The notes below the pieces were generated by a model, which searched no databases, was not told the DNA's origin, and saw only the letters and a program-made list of their open reading frames with translations. A DNA stretch of 64,000 nt from positions 294,062-358,061 of the forward strand of contig NC_031470.1 of NCBI RefSeq assembly GCF_000006565.2. Reading direction: 5' to 3'. The translations under genes and the position numbers were made by a program. This DNA is from Toxoplasma gondii ME49. Taxonomy: Eukaryota > Apicomplexa > Conoidasida > Eucoccidiorida > Sarcocystidae. This document shows, in pieces, positions 2,736-33,000 of this stretch. Each line of letters starts with the position of its first letter. Within the stretch, counting starts at the first letter, position 1.

Positions 2736-4061
2736 TCAGTCACCTCTTTTTAGCTGGAAAAGAGATATGCACGTGGGCAACTCGTTGACAGATTCAAAAA
2801 TATGGTTGTAGCGGTGGTCAGCAAGGCTTGCTTTGACAGCATCACCATTCGTCCTGCAAACTTCTTTCCAACCGAAGTCCTCGACCCATGTCGCCATATT
2901 AGCTGGCAAGAAGGTCCACTTCTCGGGTGCATGTGTTATCAGGTGACGCATTCGCTTCAGGGGACCGTGCCGCCATTGCTCGCCTCCCCATCGTGCTCCT
3001 GCTTCCTGTCGTTCGTCTTTGAACTTCTTTCCCTCTGCGATGCGTGTCTCCTCTGTGTAGTCATTCTTCGAGTCATCCGCATCGATCAGATAATCCATGA
3101 GAAGATGCACCTCGGCCCCCTTTGGGCCACTGTTTTCGTCTCCAGAAAGGGTAAAGTATTTACGAATATCGTCCAACATATGACGCAGTTTGTCTGTTGA
3201 AACGTAAGGAGAAACTCCCTCGACAATGAATGCTGTGTTGACGTCATGTCGAATTCCAGGGCATCTCAGTTTCTCCTCAAAACGATCGCTCTCTAAGTCG
3301 CACGGAATGAAGCGGAGCGTTCGATAACCGTTGAGGAGGTCATCCGCCTTGAGAGACCTTAGAAGTTGTCTACACTTGTGCCGCTGTACATTGTGCAAAT
3401 CCATTTCAAAAACACAGACGCCTTTGTGCTTTATGATTTCAGCGAATCGATATGCACGTGTATCGAACCCGGCTCCAACTAAAATAACCTGTTGCACGTC
3501 TTTCTTTAGAACAGCCCACCGGAAAAAAGATTCGAAGTGCGCGGTCCGTACTGTGACGTACCCCCAGAGTTGGAGAAAGGCGCGGCTCAATTCCGAGACA
3601 AACGAAAGCTTGTGACATAGCCTCGAACACCAGTACACAAGTTCTGCATGCCAACTAGGGAAGACTGACATGAACCTCATAATGCATCTTATTAAGAATA
3701 CTGGACAGAAGCCTGTTAAAAAACGTCTCTCTGAGGAGTCATGTGCGAGGGGGAACTCGTCAGGAAGGTAAGGACATGTAGCTGTTTCCTTCTTTTCCTC
3801 GGGGTCTCGGGACTTGTTTCCCTTCTGACCTTGCTCTTCCTTACTAGCCGCCGCAACCGGATATATAAATGTTGACAAAAAACGCATTCGAGCCACATGA
3901 GCAGCATTCCATGTTTTGTCTTCAAAGAATGAGGCTAAGAAAACGAATGCATCTTCAACAACACGCACGATACCAAGTACGATACTCATGCCTACGAGAA
4001 TCAAGGCCCCTGGCAGGCGGCGGGCAATGTGTAGCAGCGAGCTTGCAGAACTTCCCTTCAT
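2736..4061 (-). CDS. Membrane-anchored class I SAM-dependent methyltransferase (leucine carboxyl methyltransferase / COG3315-like)
   Basis: A single-exon protein of 441 residues. The ATG at 4061 has a good AAAATG context; the frame is open further upstream but contains no earlier ATG. Residues about 17-36 form a hydrophobic helix, so the N-terminus is probably a membrane anchor, followed by a charged Lys/Glu linker at about 73-95. The catalytic domain begins near 165. GAGFDTR at 196-202 is the SAM-binding glycine motif, acidic residues at 219-221 suit ribose binding, and IVEGVSPYV near 279-287 matches the motif-IV region. The GAGFDTRAYR form is closer to the bacterial-type COG3315/TIGR00027 methyltransferases than to eukaryotic LCMT1, which methylates the PP2A C-terminus. 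The substrate is unknown, and a polyketide- or small-molecule-type O-methyltransferase is also possible. Family assignment is confident; the role is not. Confidence 0.85.
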   Translation of the reverse strand: MKGSSASSLLHIARRLPGALILVGMSIVLGIVRVVEDAFVFLASFFEDKTWNAAHVARMRFLSTFIYPVAAASKEEQGQKGNKSRDPEEKKETATCPYLPDEFPLAHDSSERRFLTGFCPVFLIRCIMRFMSVFPSWHAELVYWCSRLCHKLSFVSELSRAFLQLWGYVTVRTAHFESFFRWAVLKKDVQQVILVGAGFDTRAYRFAEIIKHKGVCVFEMDLHNVQRHKCRQLLRSLKADDLLNGYRTLRFIPCDLESDRFEEKLRCPGIRHDVNTAFIVEGVSPYVSTDKLRHMLDDIRKYFTLSGDENSGPKGAEVHLLMDYLIDADDSKNDYTEETRIAEGKKFKDERQEAGARWGGEQWRHGPLKRMRHLITHAPEKWTFLPANMATWVEDFGWKEVCRTNGDAVKASLADHRYNHIFESVNELPTCISLFQLKRGD

Positions 4062-4899
4062 TTTGACATGATATAAAGCCGCCTCCGACGACTGTTCTGT
4101 GACAAGAAAGTACACGAGTCTAGTTGAAAAAAAATACCTTGACGTAAACTGCCAAAAAAAGAGTCCGTCTCGGGCGGGGTCGTTCCCCGTCTTTGTGAAG
4201 GTACAACTAATGGTAGCTCTATTAGCCAGTATGAGCGTTCCCCGTGTGCCACGGACAAAAAAGTCGTATCATACTTGGATGATCACGTTGTCACGGACAT
4301 CAAGGTGGGAGGTGGTGGTACTGTTCGTCCTCGCCGACATGATCCCCCGTTCATGCGGGAAATGCGCAGCTGATCCGTTTCTGCTAACTCGTACGCCAGA
4401 AAACGCATGTTGGCTCGTTGCACAACAGCTAGCTAGAGCATAGCTCTGTGACGATTAAGACGTCTCGAAAAATCCACAGCAAACCACTCGATAATAAACC
4501 TGGGTGCTGTCGTGGCGGGCAGTGTAGTGACTTACGTTCGCTCGCTAGAGTAGTCGGGCATGGCAGCAGAAAACATGCCCCCAATTATACTTTGTATCAC
4601 CTTCGACGAACATACAACATTCTTGGCTGTGAAATTTAGCGATCTGCTGGCGACCTCCGCAGCACAACGCAGCGAATGTCGCCGCTGCTACGTGACGTTT
4701 TACTTTAGTTACGATGCACACGCTTTGCGGCAGCGATACAGAGGGACGTCTGAGGCACCACATATCTAGGCGGGCAGGACTGAAAAGCCACGTTTTTCAT
4801 AATGCGGAGATGTGCGAAATCTCTTCACTTTTTGTGTCTTTACGGGAGGCCTGCATCAAAGCTCTTGAGTCTGTTTCACTACACTAGGCAGAGGTTACC
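4062..4899. other. Intergenic spacer
   Basis: No coding signal is convincing in this interval. It holds the methyltransferase promoter and 5' UTR (minus strand) and probably the 3' UTR of the minus-strand membrane-protein exons that end at 4900. Confidence 0.5.
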
Positions 4900-7039: not shown

Positions 7040-9673
7040 ATGAATCCCGCACGTGATTCTACCTGTGAACCGACTAGTGTAAAGATGGTGTCAGAGGCAC
7101 CAGGCGTTCCTTCCTCGCCGTCCACAGAAGTGCGCACTGCTGCGTTGAAGGCGTGGCGAGCGTGGCGAAAGGACAACAAAGGTCCCCTAGAAGAGGTCCT
7201 GCAGAACCCTGCTGGGTACAGTCTTTACAAAGCTATGAAGTCATCCGCAGGAGGGCCGGTCCCAAATACGTTTCAGCAATGGCTGCAGCAAAATGAGCAT
7301 GCGAAGCGGTGGCTTGCATGGCGCCAGGGATGTCCGGGGCAGTTGCGGGAGGTTTTGGCAGACCCAGAGGGCTGGCGGCTCTTCTCCACGATGAAGCGCG
7401 AGAAGGGTCAGCCGGTTCCCGACACGTATGAGGAATGGCGAGACTTGCCGGAGCACAAAATCGTTGTGAGCAGACGGACGTGGTCAGCTTGGCGTCGCGC
7501 CCATCCGGGGCCTTTGGCTGCGACGCTGGCGGATCCTGAGGGCTGGGCCCTCTACCGTCAAATCAAAGTATCGGACGGAAAAGATGTTCCAGAAAGGTAC
7601 GAGGATTGGGTGTCTCACCCGACTGTGCGCAAGCAGGCGGCCATGGAGGCCTGGACGCAATGGAGGCACGAGCATCCCGGCCAGCTGGCGAAAGTTCTCG
7701 CGGATCCTCAGGGTTGGACGCTGTACAAAGCCATGGTTGAGTGTGGAGACAAGCGGATTGAGGCTACCTACGAAGAGTGGATGGCGAAGCGCGACGCGTC
7801 CCCGACGTCCTGGGCAGTGTGGCGTAAGTCGCATCGCGGCCCCCTCAACGAGGTTCTGAAGGACCCAGCAGGGTGGGCGGCTTTCACAGCGTACAACACG
7901 AAGAAGGGTGTCTCTCTGCCCGCAACCTACGAAGAGTGGGTGCAGCTGCCCGAGCAGCAGAAAGGTGCAGCCTCTTTCAAGTGGTCCTCCTGGCGGAAGA
8001 CCCACAAGGGACCCCTCGCGGAGGTTCTCGCGGACCCCGAAGGCTGGGCGCTCTACGTCAACATGCTCGAAAAGGGTTCTCACGCCCGCATCCACTCGTC
8101 CTACGCCGAGTGGCTCGAGGCGTACCGGGCCGCAAAGAGTCCGGGGAGCAGTGCGGCGCAGTGGCGGCAGTGGCGCAAGGCCCACGAAGGACCGCTCGAG
8201 CAAGTCCTCGCTGACCCTGAAGGGTGGAAGCTGTACGCTGCGCACATGCAGCGAGGTGGGCGCCGGGCTTTCCCAGGCGACTTCGATACCTGGCTTCGCA
8301 TCCACCAAGCAGAAGCCAAGTGGATTGAGTGGCGGCGAGTCCACAGCGGGCCGCTGAACAAAGAACTTGCTGACCCGGAGGGTTGGGAACTCTTTCGCCT
8401 GCGCAGCGCCGCTCGAGGCAACACCACCGTTCCGGCGACGTACGCTGAGTGGATGAAACTGCCCGAACAACAGGTCTTCGTCGCTGTGGACGCCTGGGCC
8501 GCCTGGCGCCAAACCCACCCGGGACCGCTGAAGGACGTGCTTCAAGCTGATGGCGCGACTGGCTGGGTTCTGTACCGCGCCATGCTTCGCGCTGCGGACT
8601 TGGACCTCCCGGACGACTTGGCTACGTGGCTCCAAGACTCCGGGAAACACATCAAACTCGCCTGGCAGGCCTGGCGCGACAAGCACAAGGGCCCGCTGCG
8701 CCGCGTGCTGGCAGACCCCCTTGGCTGGGTCCTGTTCAAGAACATGGTGGAGAGTTCCGGGGCGTCGATCGAACAGACCTTCGAGGAATGGGCACAGAGC
8801 AAGGCTCCATCCGGGAACGAGTGGATCAACTGGCGGCGGGCGCACAAGGGCCCGCTGCACGAAGTGTTGCAGGACCCCGAGGGTTGGAAGCTGTATCGGG
8901 AAAACCTGGTTAGGAAGAACGTGGTTGATGTGCCGCAGAGTTTTGAGGACTTTCTGCAGCAGCCCGACCAACAGAAAGCTGCCGCGACGTCTAAGTGGTC
9001 GTCTTGGCGCCGGGTCCACCGCGGCCCGCTTGTCACCGTTCTGGCAGACAAAGAAGGCTGGCAGCTGTATGTGAACATGATGGAGAAACTAGGGCATAAA
9101 ATTTGCTCTTCATTTGAGGAGTGGTCTTCATCTGCGCAGATGCACAAAGGCCGGGCGGCGCGCGAATGGCGGGCCTGGCGACGGGTGCACAAGGGGCCTC
9201 TCACCACCGTGCTCGCCGACCCGGACGGATGGGACCTGTACAAAGCGTGGACTGCAGGCGCCTCCAACCGTATGACACACAACTCGTATGAGGAGTGGTG
9301 TATACAGAAGGAAAAAGGCCGCGAATGGCGCGACTGGCGCACGAAGCATCCGGGGCAACTGAGGACCGTGCTGGCTGACCCTGAGGGCTGGGAGCTATTC
9401 AGAAAGTACAACGAGGCGCGAAACCGCTCCGTGCCCGCGAGATTTGCTGAGTGGCTCGAGCAGCAGCAACAGCAAAACCCGGTTGAGAAGGAGGAGTGGC
9501 TGGCATGGCGTCAAAATCACGCTGGAAAGCTGTCAGATGTCCTCGCCGACCCCGAGGGATGGAAACTCTACCGTAAAATGAAGGAGACGGCTCGAGAGCC
9601 GGTTGCGGCCTCGTACGTGGAGTGGCTTCAGGCGTCGCGGAACGTAGCTGTGAACGGCGTCGCTCAGGCGTAA
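7040..9673 (+). CDS. Trp-rich tandem-repeat protein, 15 repeats in five triplets (uncharacterised)
   Basis: An intronless 877-residue protein with its ATG at 7040 (GCCATGA context). After a 30-residue Ser/Pro-containing leader, the whole chain is 15 repeats of 52-60 residues. The consensus is W-x2-WR-x2-H-x-GPL-x2-VLADPEGW-x-LY, then a variable charged stretch, then P-x-x-Y-x-EW. The first Trp of each WxxWR lies at residues 39, 91, 148, 205, 258, 315, 375, 428, 486, 542, 595, 653, 710, 763 and 820. There is no signal peptide, transmembrane helix or Cys-rich motif. The regular Trp, Tyr and Pro positions suggest a helical solenoid-like scaffold; that is inference. I know no named family with this consensus. 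Base composition is more GC-rich than the flanks, and the repeats create long antisense open frames. Confidence 0.9.
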   Translation: MNPARDSTCEPTSVKMVSEAPGVPSSPSTEVRTAALKAWRAWRKDNKGPLEEVLQNPAGYSLYKAMKSSAGGPVPNTFQQWLQQNEHAKRWLAWRQGCPGQLREVLADPEGWRLFSTMKREKGQPVPDTYEEWRDLPEHKIVVSRRTWSAWRRAHPGPLAATLADPEGWALYRQIKVSDGKDVPERYEDWVSHPTVRKQAAMEAWTQWRHEHPGQLAKVLADPQGWTLYKAMVECGDKRIEATYEEWMAKRDASPTSWAVWRKSHRGPLNEVLKDPAGWAAFTAYNTKKGVSLPATYEEWVQLPEQQKGAASFKWSSWRKTHKGPLAEVLADPEGWALYVNMLEKGSHARIHSSYAEWLEAYRAAKSPGSSAAQWRQWRKAHEGPLEQVLADPEGWKLYAAHMQRGGRRAFPGDFDTWLRIHQAEAKWIEWRRVHSGPLNKELADPEGWELFRLRSAARGNTTVPATYAEWMKLPEQQVFVAVDAWAAWRQTHPGPLKDVLQADGATGWVLYRAMLRAADLDLPDDLATWLQDSGKHIKLAWQAWRDKHKGPLRRVLADPLGWVLFKNMVESSGASIEQTFEEWAQSKAPSGNEWINWRRAHKGPLHEVLQDPEGWKLYRENLVRKNVVDVPQSFEDFLQQPDQQKAAATSKWSSWRRVHRGPLVTVLADKEGWQLYVNMMEKLGHKICSSFEEWSSSAQMHKGRAAREWRAWRRVHKGPLTTVLADPDGWDLYKAWTAGASNRMTHNSYEEWCIQKEKGREWRDWRTKHPGQLRTVLADPEGWELFRKYNEARNRSVPARFAEWLEQQQQQNPVEKEEWLAWRQNHAGKLSDVLADPEGWKLYRKMKETAREPVAASYVEWLQASRNVAVNGVAQA
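7145..9643 (+). repeat. Coding tandem repeat: 15 units of about 165 bp in five triplets of about 500 bp
   Basis: Spacing between the first Trp of successive units is 52,57,57 | 53,57,60 | 53,58,56 | 53,58,57 | 53,57 residues. Every second unit of a triplet ends in a linker resembling LPEQQ (residues 136-139, 303-307, 473-477, 641-645 and a poly-Gln version at 808-812), whereas the first and third units do not. The array therefore probably grew by duplication of a three-unit block after the single unit had already been triplicated. Confidence 0.85.
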
Positions 9674-21900: not shown

Positions 21901-24900
21901 GTACCGATGTAGCCTCGTCTGATCTCGTGGAGGCTGCGATCAAAAGGCATCTGGTGAAAGGCGTCTCTGAATCGGAGGCGGTCCGCGTTGATTTTGTCGT
22001 AAAAAACCTGAAAAAAAAGACAGACATGTGACCATGGAAACGAGCGTCCGATAATGGGGCTTGCAGGGAAAACGAGAGAAAGCATACAAAGACTCGACGT
22101 GCCTTTCCAGCCAGAAATGCTCTGGAAGCGCGTGCTCGCAGCCTCAGCAAAGACCCTTCAGCACCTTGCGAGGATAAAAAGATCGACAGAACGAAAGAAA
22201 ACGAACTGCCGCAAATACAGAAGAGAAACACACCACACTACGAGACACAGACGAATGAAAAAACCGTCTAGTGACAAAAGAAACACGCGAAGGTAGCATC
22301 TCGCTTTCTATCTGTCCCTCTCCTTCTATCTTCCCACCTATCTCAGTATGTCCCTTTCTGTCTCCCTCTCTCTACCCCATCAATCTATCTCTCTCCATCT
22401 CTCTCTGTCTGTCAGTTTTTCAGTCCGTTTCTTGATTTCCGGACACTTACGAGGACTCGGTCTTCAAAGGCCATTGTATGGGGAAGCTCTGTGAGGAGGG
22501 CAGCGAGTATTTTTTCGGCGTGCTTCACTCCTGTGTTTGCAACTCTCTCCAAGCCCTCTGTGGCTGCCTCTTCTGCGCGGGGTGGTGGGGCGAAAGAGGC
22601 GTCGAGCTGGGCGAGGCGCTCCTGCTGGTGGAGCAGAGCCTTGCTCTTCAAAAGGTACATCGTGTCGGGGAGAATCCAGGACGTTTCTGGGAGGAAATGG
22701 AGGCGACTGTTACGGTCGAAGAGCTGTCGAACGAGGGTTGTGAGGACGCCACGCAGAGAAGAAGAGTGCGACCTCGAGAGCCCCCTCCGGCGTTCCTCGC
22801 CTGACCGAGAGTGGCGGCCCAGACGCTCGGCGCCGAGGCCCGAAACCCCGGGAGAGACCACAGCAGCCCACGCATTTGAGAGAGAAGAAATGGGAGCTCT
22901 GAGGGCAGAAATCGACGGCGGTGAGGAGACACTCGGCGTATAGCACGCTTGGAGGAGCTTCCACGCAACTTTATTCAGGGTCAGCGACAACCACTGGAAG
23001 TCCGAAGCCGTCAGAAGGGGAGAGCTGGAAAGAGGCGCCAAAGAAGAAGAGGAAGAAGACGAAGAGGAAGAAGATGCAGGCGGGCGAAAACCAGGGAGCG
23101 GAGCAGAGCGCGACGTCTCCACCAGTTCAGAGTCGTACATGAGCTGCAGGAGGCGGAGAGAGAACACCAAAGTGGGCGCGTGTTTCTGTTTCCTGAGAAC
23201 TTCCCCAAGTATCGGATTGCATTTCTTCTTGATGTGTTTAGGCTCCATATGTTTTCCATGACTTCGGCAAGCGCACGAAGGAGAGCAAAGAACTGCAAAA
23301 CTTCCGAACTTCCCTTTCCGTGCGTTGACCACGCACAGGGTTCGAAGCCATGCAGGAGCGAGTGAAACTGGAAATCTACGTCGATACACCCGAAAGTGGA
23401 AAAGAAAGGAGAAATAGCGAAGGAGAGGAGCTGCTGCCAAGAGAGCGCAGCAGTCAGGCGCCGGAAGAACGATCGCGGGAGGGGTCCAGAACACAAAAAC
23501 GCAAAACCCAATTCACAGAAAGCCTGCAATCACATGTTCGATTGGCACTAACTCGCGGATAGACAACGCCTGACGAACGGCAGCTTGTAAGAAGATCACT
23601 CCAACCCAGGATGGTGGAGAGTCACATCCGGCATTCGTCGCCCTGACCTGAGGACCGAACTCCGCGGCTCTCTCACCCGCGCAGCCTCTCAACAAGTAGA
23701 GAGCAAGGAATGTTCACACCGCGGAAGACCTGGTGTACTGCGTCACTCGAGCGCGAACAAGAAACAAGCCCAGATCCTGAGAATATATGCATTCCCTTGG
23801 AGCGCACAGACGCGGAAAGCGACCAATCACCACACGCATTCAAGCGTGTAAGCGAAAAAAACGACCTCAGTGACAGGACTGCACATTCGAGGCAACCCAC
23901 CTCGAGTTGATACTGCAGAAGCGTGCAAGCCGCACGGAGCACCTGGCCGAGAGGAGCGTCGAAGAATGGCGCCGGTCCCAGGCGTCTAAGAAACTGATCG
24001 ACGTCGCCGCCGCACTCCGCATCGAACTGGTGAAAGACGCAACGTGCAAATCGGGAAGCGAGAAATGAAGAAAAGACCACATGACACAAGCAGACACGCG
24101 GATGAATGACAAAACACAGAGCAAAAACGATTCATCCAGAGAAGACCTGCAGAACAAGACGACCAGCGGAAGACAGAGACAGACAGACAAAGACAATGCG
24201 GAGAGAGAGATAGGGAGAGCCAAAAGAAGAAACAGGAGCAGGCGAGAGAGGAAAGGATAATGCAGGTCAAACAGAACACACCAACAGGAAGAAGCAAGAC
24301 GCCGAGGACAAGAGCCGTAGACAGGAAAGCAACAAAGCAGTCAACACAGCAGCGAACGTCTCGCGAGGCGCTTCTTGAGTTCAGAGCCCCCCTGGAAAAG
24401 CGAAATCAGGTAAAGGGAAAAACCTTGAAAACAATAAACGAAAAGATCAGAACTTACGACGTGTCGGATGACAGGGAGGAGATGAGTGGAGAGAGACGTG
24501 TTCATGGCTAGCGCGTTCAGAATGAGTCGATCGACGCCTGCGGAAAATGCAGACCCGGAAAAACGCAAAAAAACATATTTGCTGTATTCTTTATAAATAC
24601 CTTTCACCCACTTGTTCCCGCGACAGTTGCCCTCCGATGAAGAAGGCGAACCTGTGCCTCACCTCACTCCTTCGCGACAAATGCAAACGCACGCAGCTCT
24701 TCCTCTGATTTGTCTGCGTTGGACCTAGAACCTACGAACGCAATGGCTTGATTAAATAGAGAGGAAACTAGAGCGGACAGCCACGCTGCAGCTAAAGTTC
24801 TTTCTTCCAAGAACAACAGAGACGGGGAATCCGCAGCACAGAAAGATCAATTAGATTCTGCATTCAGAGCGCCTCAAGGCTTAACTTTTGCACTTCGCGT

Positions 24901-27900
24901 TCTACACAGCTTCGAATGGCGCCACTGTTTTACGCTTCCACCTTGCAAGACCCAAACAGAAGTCTGTCAAATACGGTTCTTTCGAATGAATGTTCGAACA
25001 CATGACGCGGTGTTGGAAGTGACACCATCTCAAAAAACAGTGGTTCGTTACTATTTACGTCAACAACATGTCAATAAACATCAACAAAGACTAAGTCAGT
25101 TGGCTACCATCACGACGCTGAGGATTGAACGGAGTATCTCGAGTGAAGGCTTTCTACACAGGCGGACAAGCACTACGGGGCCTAATCCGCTTAATACGAT
25201 GGCCTGGAAAAACCCGCGAGGACGAGGTAAAGGAAAAGGAGACCCGGACCCCGCCTTCGGCCCCCCACCCTCCCCACCTCGTGATAGGTGTCTCCACGAA
25301 GCGGAGAGGAAGTATGCGTGGAGGCGCTGCATTTCAGTGGTAGTATGAAAACAAATGAACCGCAAATGCGGAACCGCATAATTCAGATCGAATACACAGA
25401 CACAGTACAGTGCCTAGGATACTGAATATGGTTCCAAAGAAAGGCTGTTTCTTTGCGGTTCTTGGTGGTGTCGTTGGTGAGAGAGCCCCAGAGAGGCCAC
25501 ACGGGGTTGCAGCATATTGACACGCGTTGTGATTTTCTTCATTGGACATTCTTTTTCGTGAAAAAACACTTCCCCATAGTTTATCAGTCTTACTTCTAGG
25601 AGTTCAAAATACAAACTAGGTATCTCCAATGCATCTTTCCTATGTATTCTTAAAGAACACGCATGTAAAGATATTCCTGGCTGTAGAGGTTTTGAGCGAG
25701 TCAAGACAGAAAGCTTCCCGCGAGATTGAGATCCGCACTCTGTAGACTCTAAATAGAACACGCTCGTTACCCTTGTTAGCATAGCCTTTTGACCGCGCAC
25801 TGACCTATGGCAGGTTCTGAGCCGCCATCTGCAGATGGGTCCGCGGCACTGGCATTGAAAGCTGTCATGGTGTCTTCGGTTTCGTCCTCAGAAGACTCTT
25901 CTTCAGACGGCTCTTCGCGTGCAGAGAGACTTTCGCCCGCCTCGCCTTGCGGCGCTGTGTCTACTCGTGTGTCCGCACTCGGGCATGCGCACAGAGAGGG
26001 AGGGAAAAAGATACGCAGAAGGGGAGGAAACCCTGCAGAAGATCAGACAGTTTAGGAAAGTCGAGAAGAGTCGAGGAAAATGCGATCAGACCAAAAAGTT
26101 GCGCCCATAATACTCGGTTGCGAATACAACGTTGTGCCCCCGCATTTGACGGTCCAAACTGTAAGAAACAAAGAACTCCCTACCCAGACACGCCGGGCGT
26201 GGTTCGCTTCAATGCTCACGACAGAGTACTGGATTGGATACCCAGGAAACTGCGTTTCCATCAAAGGGCATCAGAAAAACTTAGGTGGAAAGACGCAACG
26301 CGAGGTGCAGAGACAATACAGACGCGCATACAAATCTACCGTAAACAGACAGTGAGAAGGCAACGCATGCGCGCAGACACCAATGCCGAAAAGCAGACGA
26401 AGCCATTGTAGAGAGGTCTCTGCAAAAGAAAGGATGTGGAAAAACCTATGTTATACGCCTATAAACAAATATACATATACACGTATATATATACTTACAT
26501 GTTTCACTGCATTTCAATTTGAACATCAGAGGAGCAAAGTGAGTGTGTGGATCGGTTTGCAGTTGGACATTCAACGAATTTTTTCCTTTTTCTCACGATT
26601 TGGTGGGTCTTCATCGGCGCAGTCGAAGAGGGCACGGAGAACTGCGGGCGTCATGAGGAGGCGCAGCTGGCGCCTGAGGGCAGCGTCGATCCCGGGTTCT
26701 TTTTCTCCTTGTGTTTCGCCTGTCTGTTGTTCCTCGGAGCTCAAAACGCTCTGCCGCAGCAGTTCGTCGTGGGCAAAGGTTGCAGCCCAACACAGAACGC
26801 ATAACAGCGTTCTCTGCGCAGCTTTGTCTTCCTGGCCGCCCCCCTCTTTGTCTCCTCGGTTCTTCGCCCAGTCGCGCGAGTCTGGATCCCCGACCTCGAT
26901 CTGGTTGTGCAGCAGACCTAACGCGTTCCCTGCCAAGCAGAGAACGAGCGGACTCTTCCTCACCTGCACTAACTCGCCTTCCCGACCGTTTGCCGCCTCG
27001 GCCTCAGTCCGCACTCTCCTGGAAACGTCTTTCGTCACCAAATCGCGAATTTGTTGCTCGGCCTCGCGGAGCCGACGACTCGCTGTCTGGCCTTCAAGCT
27101 GCTTCGCCGCGGGCGGCTCGCCTCCCAGGGCTCCACGAGAAGGAAGAGTGACAACGGTGGATTTGGGCAGAGCCCCCCGATGTTTCGGGGAAAGCTGGGG
27201 TAGCTGAAGCATCTGAAGAAGCGACTGAAGCGCGTCGCATCCCGCTACGGAGCTCAGCATGCGGCCGAGAACGAGGGTCAGGAAGCGCGTGCGCCGCCTC
27301 CACTTTTCGCTCTCATCGTCTGCGAGCAGCGGGAGCCGAGAGGCAGTCAAAACAGAGGGAGAGGAAGAAGACAAAGGCGATGGAGGCGGCCCCGTGGCGT
27401 CGAAAACCGGAACCAGACACGGAGCGCCAAAAAGGTGGACGAGAAACTCCAGCTCGCCGCTCACGTCTAAAAAAACGGAAAAAGCACACAGGAAAGATGG
27501 AGGGACGAACTAAGAAAAGAAATGCGGACAAAAGACACGGGCTGGCGAAGCATCCGAAAAAGGGGCAGGAACGAGCGGCAAGAGACAAAAGCGGGAACAT
27601 CAGATAGAACGGAAACGTGGATGCCACGACTACGAGGGAAGAAGGAAAGACTGGTGACAAGGTAACAGTGCCGTCGCTGTAGCTGTTGGTGAACGCGAGA
27701 TCGACAGGTGTTTTCCAAATTCGACAGCGCAGAACTCAGAACTTCGCTGTATGGCGCGTTTTAACAAGCTATAGGCAAGAGACTTTGAAACTACACTCTC
27801 CAGCGAAAAAGCGACTCTGAATTGACAACGGCGGAGAAATAGGCAAAACTCCGTCGCGAAGGCCAGGGACATTCCCCACCGACTCGATCGAGAGAGCGGA

Positions 27901-30077
27901 CCTGGCTCCTGAGAGAGATTCAGCCGCTTTGATCTTTAGTGTAGTTCAGTGAACACCTTCCCTTTCATCAAAGGATATGACTGATTTCAGAAAAAGTCGA
28001 ACCAGAGAGGAAAAGGCCTGTCAAACCGGTGAGCGCCGAGGCCCCTAGAGGGTGGCCAGATGCTCAGAGTGATCCTAAATCGTTCCTTACCATCTGCTGC
28101 TCTGCATACGCACAACCATGTTTCGACGGCCGCAGCGAGGTCCCGCTCCCGTCGGTCTGAAATGGTTCGTCCTTCGCCACAGATCGCACCCTCCTCGACT
28201 TCGGCCGGAGTCGTCATCGCGTCTGCCAGAGCGTCTCCGAGCATGGCTGCTAGCGGGCCTCCGCCGACAGCCCGCCAGCTGCGCAGCAGGCGAGAGAGCC
28301 CACCGGCGTCCGAGGAGTTGGGGAGGATTTCTGCGACTCGATCGCTCTCCAACGAATCCCCCGATGCAGACGCAGAGGCGACAGCGAGAAGAATATCCCG
28401 GACGCTTCGAATCCAGTGCCACAGCTCCTGAACTCCTTTCTCCGGCGTCTCCGGACCCGCAGGCAGCAAGAAAAAGGGCGGATCCGACGCACCCACGCTT
28501 CGCCTTCCTGCAAGCAAATTGCTGGCCACATCCACGCCCTCTTCCGCGTTCTCTTGCCCCCCCAAAAGGGCGCTTGGTCTCTCGCCCAGGCCCCCGGACT
28601 CCCCCGCCCCTACGCCCCCAGAAGTCGCAGGTTCCTTCTTCCCGTTCGTCGCGGCATTGTCGTCTGTTCTCGCGAATGTCCGCAGGGACGAGGCGAGGAC
28701 GCTGCCTCTCCAGCCGCATGCAGGCCTCAAGTGCACCCATGAGAACGCGCTGAGGCCCGCGACTCGTCGCGGGGGCTCGTCCCCGCTATTTCCGTTCTCT
28801 AGGCCGAGGAGCCGGGTCATCTTGTCCTGCTTCAAACCCCACTCGGTGCGCATCTCCCGCGTGCCAAGACTTCCCCTGCCCCCAAACAGAGAGACGGTTG
28901 CCGGCGCAGCAGTCACGGACGAGTCGCAGGCCGCGGGGGATCGATCCCTGCTGCCTTCTGAGGCTTGGGGAACAAGAAAACGGGGTGGCAGCAGAGACGC
29001 GGGAGCCTCGTTGCTGAAGAGAACAGCGCGGTAGCGGAGAGCAGCGCACTGCAGCAAGAGGCGCAACTCTGTGGTGGCCAAAAGCTGAAGAAAACGAGGC
29101 TCATGCGGCAGACGGTCTCGCGCAGAGGCTCTGGTGGAAGGCGCATGACTCGAAGAATCTGGGGCTTGCGAGGTTAGAGGTGGAGCAGGTGTCTGCTCGG
29201 TTGAGCGCAGCTCTTCCGCCGCGAGAGGGAAGAGACAGGTATTGATTGATGCGCGAGTTGCATCCTCCATCTCCACGTCGAAGGGCGCCTGTCTCCTCGA
29301 AGCGTTGCATGTGCCACAGAGCCGTCCGTGTATCGCGTGGTCTTCTCCGAGATTCAGCACCCAGTCACACAGGAGGGCGAGTCGCGCGACGTCGTCGGTA
29401 AACACCGTCGTTCCACCGGCATAAAAGGTGACTTGCATCCCTCCTGAACTCCGCTCTTGAGCGAGTGTCCGCGCCGCGCAGTCCGACTTGTTTCCTGCTT
29501 CTCCGACGGTTGCAAGCGTCGACGCGTCGCCGGCTGTCGGCACCTCCAGCTCGCGGGTCTGACGCCCCCCCTGACTCCGCGAGGGGCTCCGCCTCCTCTG
29601 GCCATCTTCGTCCGGATCGAAGAAGAACGCAAGTTGCCGGATGAGCCTCGGCAAAGCGCGTTGAATGCAGAGTGCACGGCGGGCTGCAGGCTGCCCGTGT
29701 GTATGCGTTTCACAGCTCTTCCCCTCAAATCGAGTTCGGCGCCCTGTCTCTGAGGCTCCGCTGCCCGTGCCGTCCTCCGCCCCTGCAAGGAGGCCAGCAA
29801 CAGCGGCATCGAAGGCGCGCCGGTGGTCCCCCTTCGTTTGCCTTCGAACGAAAGAAGATCTCCAGCACCTCTGGACTTTTAAGGCAGCGTCCACAGACCT
29901 GCGATGCTGCTCTCGCAGTTGCCTCTCTCGACGCTGGAACTCGAGCAAGGAGGAGCGACAGGCGGCGCCGGAGGAGCCAGCGACCCCGGCTGCAAGGCGC
30001 CCGCGGACGAAGGCCGGACGCGAGGCGCCAGAAAGATCGATCCTTCGGTTGGAAGAGTGCGTAAAGTCCGAGAACAT
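15996..30077 (-). CDS. UBE3C: HECT-type E3 ubiquitin ligase, UBE3C/Hul5 family
   Basis: Exons (phases agree except where noted): 30077-28091, 27466-26597, 25960-25805, 24537-24458, 24026-23901, an exon ending 22451 with uncertain start (about 23.15-23.4 kb), 22007-21867, 20206-20111, 19664-19617, 19085-18987, 18223-17973, 17536-17367, 16943-16852, 16244-15996. The product is about 1750 residues against about 1080 in human UBE3C. The ATG at 30077 lies in CCACCATG, and the N-terminus resembles UBE3C (MFS..., GASR, then an Arg/Glu-rich helix and an IQ-like helix near 64-80). The HECT domain holds [45 protein letters not shown] and TSSTC, with the catalytic Cys codon at 16095-16097, and ends EGFGLS, keeping the conserved Phe near the C-terminus. 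It should accept ubiquitin on the Cys and transfer it to substrate lysines. Long coccidian-specific inserts are acidic or Ser-rich. Confidence 0.92.
20452..20545. repeat. AT/TG-rich microsatellite-like tract in a HECT intron
   Basis: Imperfect TATATGTATACATG-type repeats, with no coding signal, within the intron between the exons at 22007-21867 and 20206-20111. Confidence 0.6.
22300..22430. repeat. Polypyrimidine (TCTC/TATC) low-complexity tract in a HECT intron
   Basis: About 130 bases of imperfect TCTCTC, TCTATC and TCCCTC on the plus strand. On the transcribed strand this is purine-rich and lies just downstream of the donor at 22451/22450. Confidence 0.7.
25377..25435 (+). repeat. Diverged copy of a dispersed short repeat in a HECT intron
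   Basis: The start (ATAATTCAGATCGAAT) nearly matches 31719-31733 (ATAACTCAGATCGAAT), and the later part (tag-gatactgaat-tggttcca) follows the order of the 74-bp repeat unit at 31.8 kb. Confidence 0.5.
26460..26502. repeat. AT-rich microsatellite-like tract in a HECT intron
   Basis: Imperfect ATATAC/TATATA repeat between the exons ending at 26597 and starting at 25960. Confidence 0.6.
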
Positions 30078-33000
30078 GGTGGAAAAAGCGAGACCTTTGC
30101 GACTCACAGAGACAAGACGGCCGTCTGCTCCGACAAAGGGTGCCGGACCAGACGTCGCCGCGAGCGTCCACAGATGCCTCACACGCTCAGTAGGCAAGAC
30201 AAATTAGGGAGGAGTGAGAGGAAGACAAAGCAACGACAGAGGAAGGAGGGAGGCAGGGACAGAGCACGTGAGTTCTCCGACACAAGGCGGAAACAGCAAA
30301 CGGGTTCGCGGTCCGAAACTGAAGAGCTGTAGAGAGCTGCCACAAGTTTAGGACCACGATTCCCTCTTAGGCACGCTCTGTGACGTGCCCGCCTGCGGCG
30401 GGTGAGCGACAACAGAAAATCCAGGTTCTTTCTGTGGCTTGGTCGGACTTCGAGGCTTCGGTATAGTCTCGGAGTTTCAGAAATGACGCGGTCGCTGCTT
30501 TGACAACATGAGAGCGTGTGAAAGGGTTTACGACGACGAAGAAACGAGACGGGGGGGGTTCGGCCAACACCAGAGCGCGAGCAAGGAAGACGGATGAGAC
30601 AGGAGCGGGAGGCTGACTTCAGCAATGCCGGAAATAACGCGGGATCTCTGAAAGTTAGCTATGAACTGGGAGAGTGGTTTTTCCTTAGAAAGACAAAAAG
30701 CAGTGTTTCCCTGGAAGATCCGTTTTAAAACAGAACGTTTTCGACGGTACTGTGTATGGGCCCCGACTAGGAACATAGCCGCGTTCGAATGGCCAGCGTT
30801 TCTCTCTTAGGAATCTGAATGGAAACATCCTCCCGTCAAGGAATCTGTCCTCCTCAAAAAGACCGACTTTTAGTTAGCAGTGGTTAAGATTTTACGTGTA
30901 GTCAAGCATACTTGTGCCTCTTCTCGAAGCGGTTCCTGCACAACGAAACGTTTCAGCATCAGAGGGTGTGTCTGCCTGTCTCGCTGTTGCGTGCATGTTA
31001 CGCGCGGACACAGTCACTATTTCGTTGGCCTCGGTGACATTTCACGATCAGAAGTTCGGTTCTTGTGAAAAAGAAGGCGAACAACGCCCTCAAAAAGACC
31101 CATTCCACATGTTTTTGATTGCGAAGTCCTTTTCTTCGAGGATTGAGCCTTTGGTTCCTGTCTCTAGTGCCTCGCTTCTCCGCTGATCGTAGTTCGTTTC
31201 AGAGTCTGTGTAGAGGCGCGCTGGACAGCGGGAGCACGCCAGCCGCCATCTGCTGCCGGAAACTCCGCCACGCTAATGACAAGTTACCGCTTTCTCGGTA
31301 AAGAAAATTCAAGGGCAATACGATGAAAGCACGTTTAAACTTCACACTGGGTTCGTTTAATGTTAACTTACTACAGACCATCGGAGCGACGATAATCTAC
31401 CATGTAACTCCGTTCATGGAAATCAAGAGCTGAGCTTAGAAAAAGAAATTGTTCTTCGCGAAGTAACTTACCGCAAACTGTCCCGGAAACGAGTTGACGG
31501 CAACCTGCCCGGTGTGTTGTACAGCAGATGTCAGGTTCGATGAGTACCGGTTCGAACATAGCCTTTCCTCCTTGAGTTTTTGCGTAGTTCTTTTTTGTGA
31601 AGGAGGAGCCATTTAATGAATTCGTCGCGAAATCCGCTCCGATAGAAAGCAGCATAACAGTTGCAGGAGTGCTGACCTCCGAGACAGTGCCAAAACACGA
31701 GCGTCCTGCAGAACGCCATAACTCAGATCGAATGAAAAGACATTATAGTTCCGACGATAAAAAAACGGGATACGACCCACGTCATCAGATACAGATAATC
31801 AAGTTCCGTATTATTGCGGACATTGTAGTACCTCGGATACCGAATCCGACTCCAATCAGGAGATACAGACAATCAAATTCTCTATAATAGCCGACACCGT
31901 AGTACCTCGGTTTCTGAATGTGACTCCAGACGTGAGTCACAGACAACCAAGTTCTGTATGATTACCGTACACCGCCGCAGGGCACAGCGAGTCCAAGAGC
32001 AAACATGAGTAAGAAAACCTTTTTTACAGGTCACCGGGCCCTTCAAAACGGGTGTACGTAGTTATCTGGGCAATATAATTAGGGTGGTCGTGTGCGGTTA
32101 ATTCTGGAAAGTGCGTCGTGTTCCAGAAGGTTGAAACGTTGGCATTTCAAGAATACTCTCGCCGATGTGCCCGATGAAGGGGTGCAATACGTGTCATCGT
32201 CTGAGTAAAGCCCTACTACCTGCCTCCTGGATTGAGCAAGCATTCATCTTCGTATTTTGAGTCCTCGATGATGTTCATAACAGTGCATTCAGCGTGCCTC
32301 CCACTGTCGGAAGCAGCTCCTATTATATGACCCCGTGAACATTTTTACAGGCCTGGTATCCACTACCGTTCACTTCTTCGAGATTCGGACCCCTTGCGAT
32401 TGACCAAAACACACACTGTAATAGGCCCGCTTGGGTCGGCAGCAATGAGAGGCAGGCGAGACTTTCTTCGAAAAAAGAACTGCCGTGTATCTCCCGTTAA
32501 CATGTGCACGGATCCCAACTGCCAGAGCAAGACGGCGGCAGCACTGTGCATCGTCCGAGGCGTGCAGATACTTACCATGTAGCGTCCCAAGAGAGAGTTA
32601 ATAGGAATCCAGTGGCTTGAAACAGTGTACCCTTTCAGGTTCTGCTCTGTAAAACGCGTACATATATATGTATATAGGAACTGCGGTTGAGGAAGGACGG
32701 AAGGACTTCGTGCCTGGGTTGAATACACAATAGTGTTTGTCTGAATAGGTATCTACGATGGAAACGCGTAAAAAGTCTGCACACGGGCACACCCTCTATT
32801 TTGCCGCTAACAATTCGTCGAGTGGTCAAGCGTGGACTATAACCGCTGGTCGAAACTGACGCTGCAGGTGGGAATTGGTTCCTACATCTAACGGTTGGGA
32901 ACTGAAAGTCAGGCCACTTGACTTTGTAGCTCTTACTGATCTGGGGCGAATCTTTGATAAGCAGTTTTGAGCTGGGACTCACACGGCACCAACAAGTTTA

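What the first reader, a model, noticed from the sequence alone, without database searches (positions are those of the whole stretch)
7040..9673. Unnamed Trp-repeat protein built from five three-repeat super-units
Nearly the whole 877-residue protein is 15 copies of a motif (WxxWR, H-x-GPL, VLADPEGW, LY, YxEW). Spacing between units cycles 53, 57, 57 five times, and only the middle unit of each triplet carries a LPEQQ-like linker. The evolutionary and probably structural unit is therefore a triplet of about 167 residues. I know no family with this consensus; it may be a coccidian-specific scaffold or binding solenoid.
Basis: seen in the sequence. Interest (0 to 1): 0.85.

Follow-up and report, generated by a model that had tools for sequence, protein, structure and literature searches.

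The report
Fifteen-unit helical repeat protein in Toxoplasma
A single-copy Toxoplasma gene, filed in databases as hypothetical or 'p97', encodes a chain of fifteen small tryptophan-rich helical units joined by linkers whose lengths repeat every three units; relatives turned up only in coccidian parasites or unnamed sequences, and the protein's function is untested.

Summary
The 877-aa ORF (7040-9673, +) is T. gondii 275650 ('hypothetical'/'p97'), with 15 units of about 55 aa; HMMs from one half find every unit of the other (49-74 bits; best of 1000 shuffles 6.3). Named homologues are all coccidian (Besnoitia, Cystoisospora, Eimeria, Cyclospora); others are unnamed contigs. The T. gondii protein reaches no Pfam cut-off. 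The triplet is real as architecture: linkers run 9-10 / 14 / 11-16 aa, and across 14 orthologues the middle linker is exactly 14 aa in 48 of 48 measured junctions, though matched units are only 23-60% identical between T. gondii and eimeriids. A three-unit model is confident (pLDDT 90.8): all helical, with a continuous helix at the short junction. The triplet as duplication unit is not supported: in a tree of the 15 units the phases are not clades, and 3-6-9-12-15 is rejected (AU p = 0.017). Best reading: a coccidian-restricted, rod-like helical scaffold. A paper quoting hyperLOPIT puts it in the nucleus, but proximity data list it near mitochondrial and cortical baits, so location and partner are unsettled. 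Function is inferred, not shown.

The parts
7040..9673 (+). single open reading frame, 877 aa, about 101 kDa, pI 9.2, T. gondii 275650 ('hypothetical'/'p97')
   Evidence: one place in G000
7040..7141 (+). N-terminal leader, residues 1-34; residues 1-26 with pLDDT under 50 (likely disordered)
7142..7639 (+). triplet 1, units 1-3 (residues 35-200); linkers 9/14/14; unit 1-2 junction a continuous helix; residues 29-199 modelled alone at pLDDT 90.8
7640..8149 (+). triplet 2, units 4-6 (residues 201-370); linkers 10/14/16; unit 6 is replaced by a K/S/G-rich stretch in the eimeriid-type proteins
8150..8647 (+). triplet 3, units 7-9 (residues 371-536); linkers 9/14/11; unit 7-8 junction a continuous helix
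8648..9154 (+). triplet 4, units 10-12 (residues 537-705); linkers 10/14/14; unit 10 degenerate in the eimeriid-type proteins
9155..9643 (+). triplet 5, units 13-15 (residues 706-868); linkers 9/14; unit 13-14 junction a continuous helix; unit 15 not found in the 11 eimeriid-type proteins

Best explanation
A coccidian-restricted, all-helical tandem-module protein that works as an elongated multivalent scaffold or adaptor, more likely than not in the nucleus. Shown: 15 head-to-tail units, each predicted as helix 1 (W..WR..H), a short helix (PL..VL), helix 3 (PEGW.LY..M) and a short TYEEW helix; three junction types in fixed order; orthologues with the same order of linkers. Inferred: the conserved tryptophans form each unit's core; 9-residue A-to-B junctions can run through as one helix and stiffen pairs, while the fixed 14-residue B-to-C and the similar C-to-A junctions kink the chain, so the surface repeats about every three units; partners bind along that surface, with units 2-5 and 11-12, the best conserved between the two families, the likeliest contact sites.
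For: Repeat and periodicity. B-to-C linker exactly 14 aa in 48 of 48 measured junctions over 14 orthologues; A-to-B 8-10 aa in 57 of 68, all 11 exceptions being the degenerate eimeriid unit 10, while the W25-W46 distance inside B units takes five values (21 in 53 of 70). Three-unit model pLDDT 90.8, pTM 0.65, helix 50-69 continuous across A-to-B and split 102-106/109-126 across B-to-C; full-length model shows continuous helices after units 1, 7, 13 and split helices after 5 of 5 B units. T. gondii-eimeriid identity by position: 60, 50, 58, 48% at units 2-5, 49, 49% at 11-12, but 34, 43, 33, 23% at 7-10. hyperLOPIT nucleus as quoted in PMC12479500 (passages).
Against: Full-length pTM is only 0.31, so a rigid superhelix is not shown; the units could be beads on flexible joints. 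After units 4 and 10 the A-to-B helix is broken in the model. C-to-A linkers vary (14, 13, 11, 16, 19). Cystoisospora unit spacing alone does not show the pattern (rank 399 of 2002), though its 3 measured A-to-B and 5 B-to-C linkers do. T. gondii units resemble the eimeriid unit of their own position best in only 3 of 13 cases (2, 4, 11), so the matching of positions rests on order, spacing and the full-length alignment. Localisation evidence conflicts: the gene was tagged as a candidate from a mitochondrial proximity proteome, and it appears in a biotinylation list for the plasma-membrane phosphatase PPM5C. No partner is known.
Confidence: 0.5

Rival explanations
1. A modular nucleic-acid-binding protein: each short helical unit contacts RNA or DNA, as PPR, PUF or Myb-type arrays do, and the three-unit register matches helix pitch.
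For: Nuclear assignment quoted in PMC12479500; basic protein, pI 9.2, 126 K+R against 110 D+E; R and H of W..WR..H are common to 87% and 80% of 78 units. Weak Pfam matches among the 16 aligned proteins include HTH_72 in 1 (E 4.9e-4), HHH in 2 (best E 0.032) and PPR_2 in 1 (E 0.039).
Against: In the T. gondii protein the only such match is HHH at 12.9 bits of a needed 24; none of these weak matches is shared by more than 2 of 16; net charge is modest and the divergent P0015 has pI 6.9.
Confidence: 0.2
2. A mitochondrial protein (for example a helical-repeat RNA-processing or ribosome factor) that cell fractionation placed with the nucleus.
For: Candidate from a mitochondrial proximity proteome; the 27 HA strains in the table equal the number of proteins localised, 22 of which were mitochondrial.
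Against: hyperLOPIT nucleus as quoted; 5 of the 27 were not mitochondrial, 4 of them among the 8 found only with BirA*; the text seen does not give this gene's own result.
Confidence: 0.12
3. A cortical or cytoskeletal scaffold near the pellicle.
For: Listed in Table 1 of PMC6459975 among proteins biotinylated near PPM5C, with IMC13, TLAP4 and GAPM2B.
Against: One proximity list that also holds a splicing factor and a SAP-domain protein; hyperLOPIT nucleus.
Confidence: 0.08
4. Chance periodicity or a non-coding frame.
For: None found.
Against: Split-half HMM against 1000 shuffles; long orthologues at 77, 56 and 31-39% identity.
Confidence: 0.01

Closest known systems
T. gondii 'p97'/hypothetical 275650 and its coccidian orthologues (BESB_030170, Cystoisospora suis p97, Eimeria and Cyclospora 'putative p97')
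   Same: This is that protein: P0001 (TGRUB_275650) is 100% identical over 877 aa.
   Different: The passages seen in three papers give it only as a tagged strain, a table line or a 'hypothetical protein'; no description of its repeats was found.
Helical tandem-repeat proteins as a kind (TPR, HAT, PPR, ARM/HEAT, PUF)
   Same: All-helical head-to-tail units of comparable size; probably an extended binding surface.
   Different: No match of the T. gondii protein above a curated cut-off; a unit of two longer and two short helices with up to four tryptophans; linker lengths follow a three-unit order.
p97/VCP and DAP5/p97, which the database name might suggest (both recalled, not from a call)
   Same: Name only.
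   Different: No AAA ATPase or MIF4G domain among Pfam matches up to E = 1.
Drosophila LD36051p, PDB 9g7u chain A
   Same: 54 profile positions (helix 3, TYEEW, PEQ linker, next helix 1) align at E 0.0069, 19.4 bits.
   Different: One partial match at borderline E; the aligned piece matches no Pfam family and the chain is not among the 8 Foldseek matches; what the protein does was not learned.

Membership tests
Tandem-repeat proteins (class) | three or more homologous units head to tail, detectable from each other | tested here: met
   15 units; split-half HMMs find 8 of 8 and 7 of 7
Helical (alpha) repeat proteins | units wholly helical | tested here: met
   prediction only: DSSP on models of pLDDT 79.0 and 90.8 lists helices and no strand
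Helical solenoids | continuous superhelix with unit-to-unit packing | tested here: inconclusive
   three-unit pTM 0.65, full-length pTM 0.31; coordinates and PAE were not available
TPR/HAT/PPR/ARM families | Pfam profile match at gathering score | tested here: not met
   T. gondii protein: no such family among matches up to E = 1. Of 16 aligned proteins PPR_2 matches 1, E 0.039; that table shows no cut-offs
TPR/HAT/PPR/ARM families | fold match to solved members | tested here: inconclusive
PI3K_p85B (PF02192) | gathering score 27 bits | tested here: not met
   22.8 bits, no single stretch passing, best stretch 21 residues; 10 of 16 aligned proteins match at E up to 0.1, scores not shown
p97/VCP AAA ATPase | AAA ATPase domain | tested here: not met
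   absent from Pfam matches up to E = 1
   phases not clades in the 15-unit tree; AU p 0.126, 0.233, 0.017
   B-to-C 48 of 48 at 14 aa; A-to-B 57 of 68 at 8-10 aa

The most novel reading that the evidence does not exclude
A new class of helical repeat, confined to coccidia, in which the unit of function is a three-module ratchet: a rigid A-B rod made by one through-going helix, then two kinks, one of fixed length, so that an identical binding face comes round once per triplet and the protein measures or spaces several copies of one partner.
Probability: 0.25. Interest if true: 0.65.

Novelty: new variant of a known kind. Interest (0 to 1): 0.5.

Why it matters
It adds an undescribed helical repeat family with an unusually strict linker rule, kept between Toxoplasma- and Eimeria-type coccidia while the unit sequences drifted apart. 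That makes a clean case for asking how order and linker length, rather than sequence, hold a repeat protein's shape. The protein is restricted, as far as these searches reach, to coccidia and has no described function that I found.

Tried and rejected
Triplet as duplication unit: rejected for phase C, unsupported for A and B. In the 68-row tree the phase labels need 11 changes against a shuffled mean of 32.5, but orthologous units alone make them cluster, so this is no support. Hexad as unit: period 6 beats period 3 in plain permutations, and units 6-12 (57%) and 4-10 (50%) are the two closest pairs, but within period 3 it ranks 65 (T. gondii), 183 (Besnoitia), 253 (Cystoisospora) and 95 (mean of the three) of 1000; on classes A and B alone 4, 8, 36 and 10 of 100.

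Wider relatives: three protein searches, with candidate lengths limited by the tool to 0.55-1.75 times the query (877, 336 and 171 aa), gave 16, 3 and 1 proteins, the second adding P0017-P0019 and the third P0019 again. In the first two only the 7994 and 7996 candidates sharing most words were scored, so distant relatives could be missed. One prokaryote genome-contig scan with units 1-3 gave 121 pattern matches and no relative. Neospora, Hammondia and Sarcocystis were not identified by name. Own-genome searches score only the best candidates, so 'single copy' means no second place was found.

The numbering of eimeriid units after the lost unit 6 was set by the full-length alignment with spacing in view, so their phase is not wholly independent of the pattern tested. 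A first linker count with a loose regular expression mis-anchored some junctions and was replaced.

Literature: searches. The gene identifiers gave three papers; '275650' anywhere gave 11, the other 8 unrelated by title. Seen: passages of PMC12479500 and PMC6459975; passages, outline, section 8 and part 1 of section 14 of PMC6156079. 'Not described' means not found in these searches of open-licence papers; supplements and figures were not readable.

Full report
What is there. The ORF at 7040-9673 (+) is 877 codons in one open frame. The window lies in a 65.3-Mb genome (G000:C4:294062-358061) in which one place matches the whole protein; a search with the divergent P0015 gave six matches, all inside this same frame. 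The protein is identical to a T. gondii entry, TGRUB_275650, called hypothetical or p97.

The repeat. Fifteen W..WR motifs start units spaced 52-60 residues apart. Split-half HMMs find 8 of 8 and 7 of 7 units in the other half at 49-74 bits; the best domain in 1000 shuffles scores 6.3. Mean identity between units is about 40% at every separation (37-45%), so the array is old. Commonest letters over 78 units of three sarcocystid and three eimeriid-type proteins: W4 and W7 100%, R8 87%, H11 80%, G13 88%, L19 98%, G24 93%, W25 91%, W46 88%.

Relatives. The first search gave 16 proteins: T. gondii, Besnoitia besnoiti (77%), Cystoisospora suis (56%), Eimeria brunetti, E. flavescens, E. media and Cyclospora cayetanensis (35-39%), and nine without a name (31-38%). 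Two further searches added only three shorter pieces, one of them named Eimeria mitis 'P97, related'. Each of the three sarcocystid proteins has 15 HMM matches; each of 11 eimeriid-type proteins (P0004-P0014, called so here from their likeness to the named Eimeria and Cyclospora ones) has 13, which by full-length alignment and spacing correspond to positions 1-5 and 7-14, with unit 6 replaced by a K/S/G-rich stretch, unit 10 degenerate and no unit 15. Unit by unit the likeness has largely faded: a T. gondii unit is closest to the eimeriid unit of its own position in 3 of 13 cases (2, 4, 11) and within about one percentage point in four more (3, 5, 12, 14). P0015 has 17 matches in 1258 aa and P0016 11 in 759 aa.

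The three-unit order. Measuring from the TYEEW tryptophan to the next W..W on the HMM alignment, T. gondii linkers are 9,10,9,10,9 (A-to-B), 14,14,14,14,14 (B-to-C) and 14,16,11,14 (C-to-A). Over 14 orthologues B-to-C is 14 in 48 of 48; A-to-B is 8-10 in 57 of 68, the other 11 all at the degenerate eimeriid unit 10; C-to-A is 14 in 17, 13 in 11, 11 in 3, 16 in 2 and 19 in 1 of 34. Orthologues are not independent, so 48 of 48 says that the length was kept, not how many times it arose. As a yardstick, the W25-W46 distance of B units takes five values (21 in 53 of 70), while W4-W25 is nearly as constant as the linker (21 in 67 of 69). By unit spacing the short junction ranks 1 of 2002 in T. gondii and Besnoitia, 399 of 2002 in Cystoisospora, which has insertions in some units, and 1 of 126 in 11 of 11 eimeriid-type proteins on the nine junctions scored.

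Structure. The full-length model (16 sequences) has mean pLDDT 79.0 but pTM 0.31: units are well predicted, their mutual placing is not. Its helices are continuous across A-to-B after units 1, 7 and 13, broken after 4 and 10, and split by two residues after all five B units.

Evolution. In the 68-row tree the three sarcocystid units of a position come out together at 11 positions; at 11 and 12 they do not, at 6 the T. gondii and Besnoitia units 12 fall inside, and the Cystoisospora unit 10 was too short to be used; with eimeriids they join at position 2 (support 84). Phase similarity is weak (p 0.005-0.04 in T. gondii), lies in the C-terminal half of the unit next to the linker, and is not significant in eimeriids (whole unit p 0.18-0.23, C half 0.08). 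The simplest account is that the register is held by structure; an ancient triplet duplication whose sequence trace has faded is not excluded.

Function. Direct evidence is thin. PMC12479500 (passages) says that hyperLOPIT puts TGME49_275650 in the nucleus and that the protein was more abundant at high passage in some isolates. PMC6156079 tagged the gene with HA; its strain table lists 27 such strains, by my count, the number localised, of which 22 were mitochondrial, three cytosolic, one ER and one nuclear, without this gene's result in the text seen. PMC6459975 lists it among proteins biotinylated near PPM5C. No catalytic or nucleic-acid-binding family reaches its cut-off in the T. gondii protein; scattered weak matches in single orthologues, HTH_72 and HHH among them, are told under the first rival. 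An extended scaffold with repeated binding faces is therefore the most likely role, by inference, at about one in two.

Verdict. Real, orderly and, as far as searched, undescribed, but a new variant of a known kind (helical repeat protein) rather than a new kind of system; the part worth following is the strict three-unit linker rule and the coccidian restriction.

Noticed in passing
2736-4265, - strand: ORF with a leucine carboxyl methyltransferase domain (PF04072, E 2e-26), a neighbouring gene.
   Followed up: no
31787-31974: Tandem repeat of 2.5 copies of a 74-base unit, the only array in the window at score 80 or more.
   Followed up: no
27987-30203, - strand: 738-codon open frame overlapping the most GC-rich 2-kb stretch of the window (63.5%), with no Pfam match at E 0.001.
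   Followed up: partly
22001-28000: Strong AT skew (0.19-0.23) over 6 kb, unlike the rest of the window.
   Followed up: no
7484-9088, - strand: 534-codon stop-free frame antisense to the repeat gene, probably a by-product of its codon make-up.
   Followed up: no
PDB 9g7u chain A (LD36051p, Drosophila): Borderline profile match (E 0.0069) covering helix 3, TYEEW, PEQ linker and next helix 1; possibly a distant animal relative of the junction.
   Followed up: partly
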